Virus record (IMG/VR): IMGVR_UViG_3300046003_004909
Location: 1-30,217 of that record
Source of the DNA: a virus
Strand: one strand, 5' to 3'
Length of the DNA: 30,217 bases
The notes beneath the pieces are model-generated. The model worked only from the letters and a program-made list of their open reading frames with translations. It ran no database searches and had not been told where the DNA came from. Below, piece after piece: positions 15,057-19,812 of the stretch (position 1 is the first letter of the stretch; every line of letters starts with the position of its first letter). A program made the translations under genes and the position numbers.

Positions 15057-15152
15057 AGTTAGGTGGTGTAAGATATTGGTTATCACGTTTGACCTCCCAA
15101 AAAATTATTGGGGATATGGAAAAAGACACAGGTTCAAATCCTGTCCTAACTA
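15057..15152 (+). tRNA. Atypical tRNA-like element A, Leu/Ser-type, isotype unassigned
   Basis: A perfect 7-bp acceptor (AGTTAGG/CCTAACT), a D arm closed by GTG/CAC and a perfect T arm (ACAGG TTCAAAT CCTGT) are present; A73 is followed by CAA. The 41 nt between the D and T arms do not form a normal anticodon arm: the best 5+7+5 fold (CCCAA AAAATTA TTGGG) has no T at position 33. It is 96 nt long, as for a type II tRNA. It may be an inserted, rearranged or degenerate tRNA. Confidence 0.55.
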
Positions 15153-16933: not shown

Positions 16934-17004
16934 GGGATAGGCAGATAAGGTATCGGCCGGCTCTGTAAAAGCCTAGCGAGGGGGTTCGATTCCCTTCTAT
17001 CCCA
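16934..17004 (+). tRNA. tRNA-Tyr(GTA)
   Basis: Acceptor GGGATAG/CTATCCC, anticodon arm with GGCT CTGTAAA AGCC and GTA at 16965-16967, T arm with TTCGATT. A73 is followed by CAA. It lacks a long variable arm. Confidence 0.88.
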
Positions 17005-17373: not shown

Positions 17374-17516
17374 GCTCGTATAACAGGTAGTGAGGTCGCT
17401 CCCCAACCTGAAGTGGGTTAATGATGGTAAAGAATTACTGCCCGATATTCTAGATAAAGTATGGTAAGTGTCTGCGCAGGTAATTAACAAAGCTGGTTCG
17501 ATTCCAGCTATGAGCA
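17374..17516 (+). tRNA. Oversized tRNA-like element D (143 nt), possible insertion
   Basis: Acceptor GCTCGTA/TATGAGC and T arm GCTGG TTCGATT CCAGC are canonical, and A73 is followed by CAA, but the unit is about 70 nt too long. ACCTG at 17406-17410 can pair with CAGGT at 17477-17481 as an anticodon stem enclosing 66 nt, or with CAGGT at 17384-17388. This looks like a tRNA with an insertion in the anticodon loop region. Isotype is not assignable. It is too short for a group I intron. Confidence 0.5.
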
Positions 17517-17522
17517 CAAATT

Positions 17523-18117: not shown

Positions 18118-18186
18118 ACCGAGTGAGCTTGGGATCAAGGATGGCTCATATCCACCCTTAGGTTGGTTCGAATCCAACACTCGGTA
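18118..18186 (+). tRNA. tRNA with CAT anticodon (elongator Met or Ile2)
   Basis: Acceptor ACCGAGT/ACTCGGT, anticodon loop CTCATAT with CAT at 18147-18149 and stem GATGG/CCACC (one mismatch), T arm GTTGG/CCAAC. A73 is followed by CAA. Sequence alone does not separate Met from the lysidine-modified Ile isoacceptor. Confidence 0.82.
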
Positions 18187-18930: not shown

Positions 18931-19437
18931 ATGAACAAGTACCAAAAAACACTGGTAGTAGATTCAAGCTTTATGGCAAGATCAATTATATCGACTGAGC
19001 GTGCTTTCGTGATTTCGTATAAAGGTAATGCAGAAGTAGTAGCTGAACATCCAGAAACATTTGGATTAGTAAATCCAAACCTACAAATTTACAAACCTTC
19101 AATCATTAGGGTTTATCAGTTTGTAAAACAACACATACATAAAGTACCTCTTACAAGAGAAAATGTATACAAAAGAGATAATTACGAATGTGTATACTGT
19201 GGATATTCAAATGTAAAAATGTTAACCCTTGACCACGTCATTCCTCAATCAAAAGGAGGAAAAGATACTTGGGATAATTTAGTTACAGCATGCAGACAAT
19301 GTAATGGAGAAAAATCAGATCTGACCCTTGAGGAATATGGAAAACAAATTCCAGAACCTAAAAGGCCACACTATCTAATGCTGATGAAGCAGATAACAGA
19401 TATACCAAAAGAATGGGAAACATTTTTGTTCTTTTAG
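18931..19437 (+). CDS. HNH endonuclease inside the tRNA array
   Basis: This 168-residue protein has an HNH core with zinc-binding CxxC pairs: YECVYCGYSN (residues 89-98), MLTLDHVIPQSKGG (102-115), TWDNLVTACRQCNGEKSD (118-135). The N-terminal 80 residues resemble those of phage and bacterial HNH proteins that carry a leading beta-rich domain. It sits between tRNA-Trp and a new promoter that restarts the array, so it has probably inserted into the tRNA cluster. Next to it lies the split tRNA described at 19485. Confidence 0.88.
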   Translation: MNKYQKTLVVDSSFMARSIISTERAFVISYKGNAEVVAEHPETFGLVNPNLQIYKPSIIRVYQFVKQHIHKVPLTRENVYKRDNYECVYCGYSNVKMLTLDHVIPQSKGGKDTWDNLVTACRQCNGEKSDLTLEEYGKQIPEPKRPHYLMLMKQITDIPKEWETFLFF

Positions 19438-19468
19438 TTGGAAAATTAAAAATAAGTTCGTATATTTA
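19437..19468 (+). promoter_or_regulatory. Promoter restarting the tRNA array
   Basis: GTTG at 19437-19440, 20-nt spacer, TATATTTA at 19461-19468. Transcription would begin just before the 3' half of the split tRNA. Confidence 0.7.
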
Positions 19469-19484
19469 AGTATAAGAAAAAAGA

Positions 19485-19568
19485 TAAAATAGTAGGACGT
19501 TGGTTCGATTCCAACAATCGTAATCCTGGTGACCAAGATTTAGCTGTAATGGTAGAGCGACTATTTTA
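19485..19568 (+). tRNA. Candidate circularly permuted tRNA (3' half precedes 5' half)
   Basis: The order is reversed. First comes the 3' half: anticodon-stem strand ATAGT (19489-19493), 5-nt variable loop AGGAC, T arm GTTGG TTCGATT CCAAC (19499-19515) and an acceptor strand starting AATC. Then comes the 5' half: acceptor strand ending GATT (19537-19540), TA at positions 8-9, D stem GCT/AGC (19543-19558) with GG in the loop, G26, and anticodon-stem strand ACTAT (19560-19564). ACTATTTTA (19560-19568) is perfectly complementary to TAAAATAGT (19485-19493). The acceptor pairs imperfectly: AATC/GATT directly, or AATCCTGG/CCAAGATT (19522-19529 with 19533-19540, one mismatch) around loop TGA. The anticodon cannot be fixed without knowing the joint. 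The alternative is a decayed tandem tRNA pair. Confidence 0.55.
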
Positions 19569-19572
19569 ATTT

Positions 19573-19642
19573 GGGCAGGATGGTCTTGGAGGCCAGCTGG
19601 ATTGCAAACTCAGCGGAGCAAGTTCGATTCTTGCCTTGCCCT
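19573..19642 (+). tRNA. tRNA-Cys(GCA)
   Basis: Acceptor GGGCAGG/CTTGCCC, anticodon loop TTGCAAA with GCA at 19604-19606 and stem CTGGA/CTCAG (one mismatch), T arm GCAAG/CTTGC. T73 is followed by CAA. Confidence 0.9.
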
Positions 19643-19650
19643 CAACAATT

Positions 19651-19724: not shown

Positions 19725-19812
19725 CAAAATAAAAAAATAGTAGGACCGGGTTACCGGATATGGGTTCCTTAATTGGACAGAAGGATCGGAGTACTGATCG
19801 CCTACATAAAAG
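19725..19812 (+). other. Structured spacer in tRNA array
   Basis: CCGG GTTA CCGG and TCCTT/AAGGA hairpins are enclosed by GTAGG/CCTAC (near 19740 and 19800). No T arm or anticodon arm is present. Unknown. Confidence 0.35.

What the first reader, a model, noticed from the sequence alone, without database searches (positions are those of the whole stretch)
19437..19573. Candidate circularly permuted tRNA gene in a phage
The 3' half of a tRNA (anticodon-stem strand, 5-nt variable loop, T arm, acceptor strand) lies upstream of a matching 5' half (acceptor strand, T8-A9, D arm, G26, anticodon-stem strand). Both halves keep exact canonical spacing. The nine bases TAAAATAGT at 19485-19493 are the perfect complement of ACTATTTTA at 19560-19568, where the two anticodon-arm strands should meet. 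The acceptor is connected by a short linker with a 3-nt loop (TGA), as expected for a permuted precursor. A promoter sits directly upstream, so the unit would be transcribed. Permuted tRNAs are known from some algae and archaea; I know of none established in phages. The honest alternative is two tandem copies that each lost an outer half and are now dead; the imperfect acceptor pairing keeps that open.
Basis: partly seen in the sequence, partly recalled or inferred. Interest (0 to 1): 0.88.

Follow-up and report, generated by a model that had tools for sequence, protein, structure and literature searches.

The report
Phage tRNA-mimic RNA, Y-RNA-like
The 'reversed' tRNA in this phage is a real, conserved RNA, but it is best read as a small tRNA look-alike of the bacterial Y RNA (YrlA) type, with its acceptor end sealed and no anticodon, rather than a scrambled gene for a working tRNA; it matters because it adds Y-RNA-like tRNA mimics without a detectable Ro60 partner to phages that probably infect Bacteroidota.

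Summary
At 19485-19568 a tRNA 3' half precedes a 5' half with canonical spacing and a 9-bp closing helix. It is not chance or decay: homologous units occur in two phage groups, with compensatory changes in the closing helix, the acceptor-like stem and, in one contig, the D stem. RNAalifold recovers the four-way junction unaided.

The interpretation as a permuted tRNA gene is not supported. In group B the would-be anticodon loop is base-paired, so there is no anticodon or U33. The acceptor is 4 bp with a conserved 17-nt loop; a 7-bp acceptor never forms. A sister unit beside it in the same phages has a 3-4 bp sealed acceptor.

This topology (basal stem, T arm, sealed acceptor, D arm) is that of YrlA, the bacterial Y RNA that mimics tRNA. 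Rfam YrlA finds the sister units (30-41.5 bits, below the 69-bit cut-off). A model built only from this family finds unannotated YrlA-like RNAs in two isolated phages. No Ro60/TROVE or DUF2828 partner was found; group B has T4-type RNA ligases 3-10 kb away. Verdict: divergent, apparently Ro-less YrlA-like tRNA mimic. Its function is inferred, not shown.

The parts
19438..19469 (+). Promoter: TTG (19438-19440) and TCGTATATTTA (19458-19468), the phage's recurrent Bacteroidota-type promoter
   Evidence: Same TCGTATATT motif at 8 places in the window, most just upstream of genes; promoter class is inference from -33 TTG / -7 TAnnTTTG knowledge
19485..19493 (+). 5' strand of basal (closing) helix, TAAAATAGT; inner five bases equal tRNA positions 39-43
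   Evidence: 9 bp perfect with 19560-19568; 4 of 5 inner pairs change on both sides among homologues
19494..19498 (+). Variable-loop equivalent AGGAC
   Evidence: Sequence; 5 nt in all aligned TLS-a homologues
19499..19515 (+). T arm, 5 bp, loop TTCGATT
   Evidence: Invariant in all aligned homologues
19516..19540 (+). Sealed acceptor: AATC / GATT stem, 17-nt conserved loop GTAATCNTGRTGACCAA
   Evidence: Third pair is U-A, A-U or C-G; 7-bp extension never pairs
19543..19558 (+). D arm, 3 bp plus a mismatch, loop with GG
   Evidence: compensatory G-C to A-U in L229
19560..19568 (+). 3' strand of basal helix, ACTATTTTA; inner five bases equal tRNA positions 27-31
19573..19643 (+). tRNA-Cys directly downstream, likely co-transcribed and a processing neighbour
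   Evidence: ARAGORN
18931..19437 (+). HNH endonuclease gene upstream; neighbour, not needed for the RNA
   Evidence: Pfam HNH 4.4e-16; present also in relatives without the RNA

Best explanation
A small non-coding RNA that folds as a tRNA elbow (T arm plus D arm) on a four-way junction, with the acceptor branch sealed by a loop and the anticodon branch replaced by a basal helix holding the 5' and 3' ends: the architecture of YrlA-type bacterial Y RNAs. It is transcribed at the head of a tRNA operon (inferred from the promoter) and released by processing of the neighbouring tRNA (inferred). It cannot be charged or decode. Most likely mechanism (inferred): it is bound and probably modified by host tRNA enzymes, and acts as a tRNA mimic that occupies or tethers an RNA-processing protein (PNPase or a tRNA-cutting nuclease, say) during infection, in the setting of phage tRNA supply and RNA repair. 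Identity is the well-supported part; the partner protein is unknown.
For: Homologues in two phage groups with compensatory changes: covariation score 0.356 against 0.122 in shuffles, 0 of 500 reach it; the consensus fold recovers the junction. No anticodon loop in group B; no 7-bp acceptor. Sister unit TLS-b is found by the TLS-a model (about 33-34 bits, E 1e-6 to 3e-7) and by Rfam YrlA over its full length (30-41.5 bits). The TLS-a model also finds, in isolated phages, places that Rfam YrlA marks independently: Erwinia phage pEa_SNUABM_47 44.5 bits (E 7.5e-12) and Enterococcus phage EfV12-phi1 37.3 and 32.3 bits. The unit is a self-contained cassette: L187 and L152 lack just the stretch that L212 carries between promoter and next hairpin. 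Published YrlA anatomy matches (PMC8394870).
Against: The window copy itself scores only 15.9 bits with YrlA, within the tandem-tRNA background; no copy reaches the 69-bit gathering score. No TROVE, DUF2828 or DUF7788 protein found in these contigs. Independent origin from a phage tRNA is not excluded. No RNA data.
Confidence: 0.78

Rival explanations
1. A true permuted tRNA gene: transcript ends are joined at the anticodon (for example by a phage T4-type RNA ligase) and RNase P / RNase Z cut out the acceptor linker, giving a decoding tRNA.
For: Permuted order and canonical spacing; in group A the loop could read UU-UAA-AA with U33 and A37 (sequence); group B contigs carry Rnl1-type ligases 3-10 kb away and several group A relatives an Rnl2-type ligase.
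Against: Group B homologues pair through the anticodon-loop positions and lack U33; two of the seven acceptor pairs never form; sister unit acceptor 3-4 bp; no BHB motif.
Confidence: 0.07
2. A tRNA-mimic RNA that arose inside phages by permutation of a tRNA gene and is not related to YrlA by descent; the shared fold is convergence.
For: No gathering-score hit; no Ro60-like partner; T and D arms resemble those of the same phage's tRNAs.
Against: TLS-b full-length YrlA alignment at 41.5 bits with shared GUAGCUCA..GGUAGAGC and sealed acceptor; cross-detection of YrlA-like RNAs in other phages.
Confidence: 0.2
3. Two tandem tRNA genes that each lost an outer half: dead remnants.
For: Position inside a tRNA array beside an HNH gene; weak single-sequence fold (z -1.15).
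Against: Compensatory changes in the closing helix, acceptor and D stem across phages; conserved 17-nt acceptor loop; clean cassette boundaries.
Confidence: 0.02
4. Functional refinement of the best explanation: a decoy for a tRNA-targeting host defence. The elbow mimic titrates an anticodon nuclease or toxin and cannot be cut because it has no anticodon loop.
For: Linkage in group B to Rnl1 and, in one contig, Rnl2, a P-loop kinase-like protein and a phosphoesterase; the same idea was raised for Salmonella YrlA (PMC7790460).
Against: Linkage shown only in one related group of phages, not in the window; no defence target known.
Confidence: 0.3

Closest known systems
YrlA, bacterial Y RNA (Rfam RF02553)
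   Same: Order basal stem - T arm - sealed acceptor - D arm - basal stem; conserved T loop and GG D loop; reported in phages too (mycobacteriophages, as cited in PMC12282133)
   Different: Scores below the curated cut-off; acceptor 4 bp with 17-nt conserved loop; no Ro60 partner found; sits in a tRNA array or near T4-type RNA ligases instead of an rsr-rtcBA operon
Permuted tRNA genes of Cyanidioschyzon and Thermofilum (own knowledge)
   Same: 3' half upstream of 5' half
   Different: No anticodon loop, no BHB, no 7-bp acceptor
Permuted (two-piece) tmRNA, RF04321
   Same: Permuted order around an acceptor linker
   Different: Has a canonical GG D arm; only 10.1 bits with the model

Membership tests
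YrlA (RF02553) | Domain order basal stem, T arm, sealed acceptor hairpin, D arm, basal stem | tested here: met
   covariance-model alignment of the sister unit
YrlA (RF02553) | Rfam gathering score of 69 bits | tested here: not met
   Window 15.9 bits; TLS-a group B about 24-25; TLS-b up to 41.5
YrlA (RF02553) | Ro60/Rsr partner gene in the same genome | tested here: inconclusive
   No TROVE, DUF2828 or DUF7788 found in the carriers, but contigs may be incomplete, the source record is 30 kb, and the host's genes were not tested
YrlA (RF02553) | Basal stem that binds Rsr | tested here: inconclusive
   Basal helix of 9 bp or more present, with a 1-nt bulge or mismatch in group B; no binding data
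YrlA (RF02553) | Pseudouridine and dihydrouridine in T and D loops | not testable with these tools
   Target sequences are present; needs RNA
Permuted tRNA gene | 3' half precedes 5' half | tested here: met
Permuted tRNA gene | 7-bp acceptor stem after joining | tested here: not met
   Two of seven pairs never form in any homologue
Permuted tRNA gene | 7-nt anticodon loop with U33 | tested here: not met
   Group B pairs through it; group A alone would allow it
Permuted tRNA gene | Joined mature product | not testable with these tools
   Needs RNA sequencing

The most novel reading that the evidence does not exclude
Bacteroidota phages carry a family of Ro-independent tRNA mimics, in one lineage as a three-RNA array (TLS-b, a D-loop-extended tRNA-like RNA, TLS-a) near RNA ligases, that work as uncleavable decoys or regulators against tRNA-cutting defences.
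Probability: 0.3. Interest if true: 0.8.

Novelty: new variant of a known kind. Interest (0 to 1): 0.58.

Why it matters
YrlA-like RNAs are known mainly together with their Ro60 partner. A conserved phage form without a detectable Ro60, placed in tRNA arrays or near T4-type RNA repair genes, makes it testable whether the tRNA-mimic module works alone, and suggests that other 'permuted tRNA' calls in phages should be checked against Y RNAs first.

Tried and rejected
Permuted tRNA precursor: rejected on acceptor and anticodon evidence. Dead tandem copies: rejected on covariation. Permuted tmRNA: 10 bits, no. Permuted intron-exon circle: no room for an intron between the promoter and tRNA-Cys in group A. 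Searches that found nothing: INPHARED by DNA similarity to TLS-a, GTDB genomes by exact motif, RtcB, TROVE, DUF2828/DUF7788 in the carriers. The motif scan CGTAATCNTGNTGACCAAG also hit six unrelated contigs without the tRNA arms (L217-L222), discarded. The core Y RNA papers (PMC4201824, PMC6281776, PMC6047535) are not held, so YrlA facts rest on PMC8394870 and citing papers. Single-sequence folding alone was not significant (z -1.15).

Full report
Observation. The unit reads TAAAATAGT-AGGAC-[GTTGG TTCGATT CCAAC]-AATC-GTAATCCTGGTGACCAA-GATT-TA-[GCTG TAATGGTA GAGC]-G-ACTATTTTA at 19485-19568, between an HNH gene and tRNA-Cys in a 23-tRNA array. ARAGORN and Rfam tRNA do not call it. It follows a promoter motif seen eight times in the window. 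In 512 tandem tRNA pairs from the fetched loci none shows the same double match, and random halves give it in 0.2%.

Homologues. Pattern scans of IMG/VR gave the unit in phages of two groups, and a covariance model added two contigs. Group A (window, a contig identical over this region seen as L130/L210, L212, L215) keeps it before tRNA-Cys. Group B (L003, L030, L213, L209, L211, L214, L216, L234, L229) has it in another setting. The inner closing helix is ACTAT/ATAGT in A and TACAC/GTGTA in B; the third acceptor pair is U-A, A-U or C-G; in L229 the first D-stem pair is A-U instead of G-C. Pair counts: 16 double-change cells against 6.4 in shuffles, 0 of 500. The shuffles ignore relatedness and there are only six distinct rows, but sliding the pairing by 1-3 columns destroys the signal. 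The junction fold comes out of RNAalifold without being given. This argues strongly against chance and decay.

Cassette. Aligned promoter-to-tRNA-Cys regions show L187 and L152 lacking the unit that L212 carries, with flanks otherwise alike. The basal helix is therefore the natural boundary.

Why not a permuted tRNA. In group B the helix continues 6-9 bp past a single mismatch or bulge after the five anticodon-stem pairs, so the anticodon-loop positions are paired and U33 is absent. The acceptor has 4 pairs; two of the further three needed for a normal acceptor are invariant mismatches. A sister unit TLS-b, found in 21 contigs, has the same order, with acceptor hairpins such as CGGA-UUUA-UCCG, and its basal helix also covaries. 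A 3-4 bp sealed acceptor cannot be a charged acceptor stem.

What it is. This is the topology of YrlA, a bacterial Y RNA whose basal stem holds the Ro60 relative Rsr and whose tRNA-like domain is modified by TruB and DusA and binds PNPase (PMC8394870). Rfam YrlA matches TLS-b end to end, group B TLS-a at about 24-25 bits, and the window copy at 15.9 bits, which is no better than tandem tRNAs. The stronger link is through the family: the TLS-a model detects TLS-b and also YrlA-like RNAs in Erwinia phage pEa_SNUABM_47 and Enterococcus phage EfV12-phi1 that Rfam YrlA marks independently. I therefore call it YrlA-like, not a member.

Partner and context. No TROVE, DUF2828 or DUF7788 protein is seen in the carriers, whereas EfV12 and the Erwinia phage encode a DUF2828-DUF7788 protein and CcrColossus encodes TROVE. 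Sixteen contigs of the TLS-b-bearing group B carry Rnl1 about 3-10 kb from the RNAs, in one case with Rnl2, an AAA_33 kinase-like protein and a phosphoesterase alongside; L003's 145-kb contig has none. Several relatives of group A carry an Rnl2-type ligase; the window has none. The bacterial rsr-yrlBA-rtcBA repair operon is a parallel (PMC7790460), and a Listeria phage with a candidate Rsr and abundant ncRNAs has been reported (PMC12282133).

Mechanism. Shown: conserved structure, no anticodon in group B, sealed acceptor, promoter motif, cassette behaviour. Inferred: transcription, release by tRNA processing, modification, binding to a host or phage RNA-handling protein, and that the host is a member of the Bacteroidota (promoter type; nearest named relative of the window is Flavobacterium phage immuto). 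Decoy or tether cannot be told apart with these tools.

Noticed in passing
L209 10202-10266 (-), L213 1425-1491 (+), L223 5537-5599 (-) and 18 more contigs: TLS-b, a second permuted sealed-acceptor tRNA mimic, in several contigs behind its own promoter; YrlA 30-41.5 bits
   Followed up: yes
L213 1507-1599, L214 147-238, L209 10092-10185: TLS-c: linear tRNA-like gene between TLS-b and TLS-a with a conserved hairpin inserted in the D loop and a GAAA-type loop instead of a normal anticodon loop; unlikely to decode
   Followed up: partly
L273 1106-1213 and 1439-1552 (Enterococcus phage EfV12-phi1); L271 1495-1563 (Erwinia phage pEa_SNUABM_47): Unannotated YrlA-like RNAs in isolated phages; EfV12 has a 510-aa DUF2828-DUF7788 protein with a weak vWA match (possible Ro60-like partner) just downstream, and the Erwinia phage has a homologue (35% identity)
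   Followed up: partly
window 16934-17004: A tRNA-Tyr (GTA) that ARAGORN missed; with it and a CAT tRNA at about 18118-18186 the array appears to cover all 20 amino acids
   Followed up: no
window 15057-15152 and about 17384-17520: Oversized or interrupted tRNA-like genes (96-nt Rfam tRNA hit at 38.7 bits; long insert between matching acceptor halves)
   Followed up: no
window 19734-19810: Inter-tRNA hairpin RNA whose start AAAATAGTAGGAC repeats 13 nt of the TLS-a 5' strand and variable loop
   Followed up: no
L214 865-1269, L213 2576-2983, L262 8611-9016: GOLLD RNA (about 300 bits), and a tmRNA in L213 and L262, near the TLS cluster in group B phages
   Followed up: no
L187 8150-8270, L212 6890-6970, L098, L152, L139: Conserved hairpin ACCTACTAC..GTACTGTCTGGCAGGTCAGGCTAGGTG between promoter and tRNA-Cys in relatives of the window phage
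   Followed up: no
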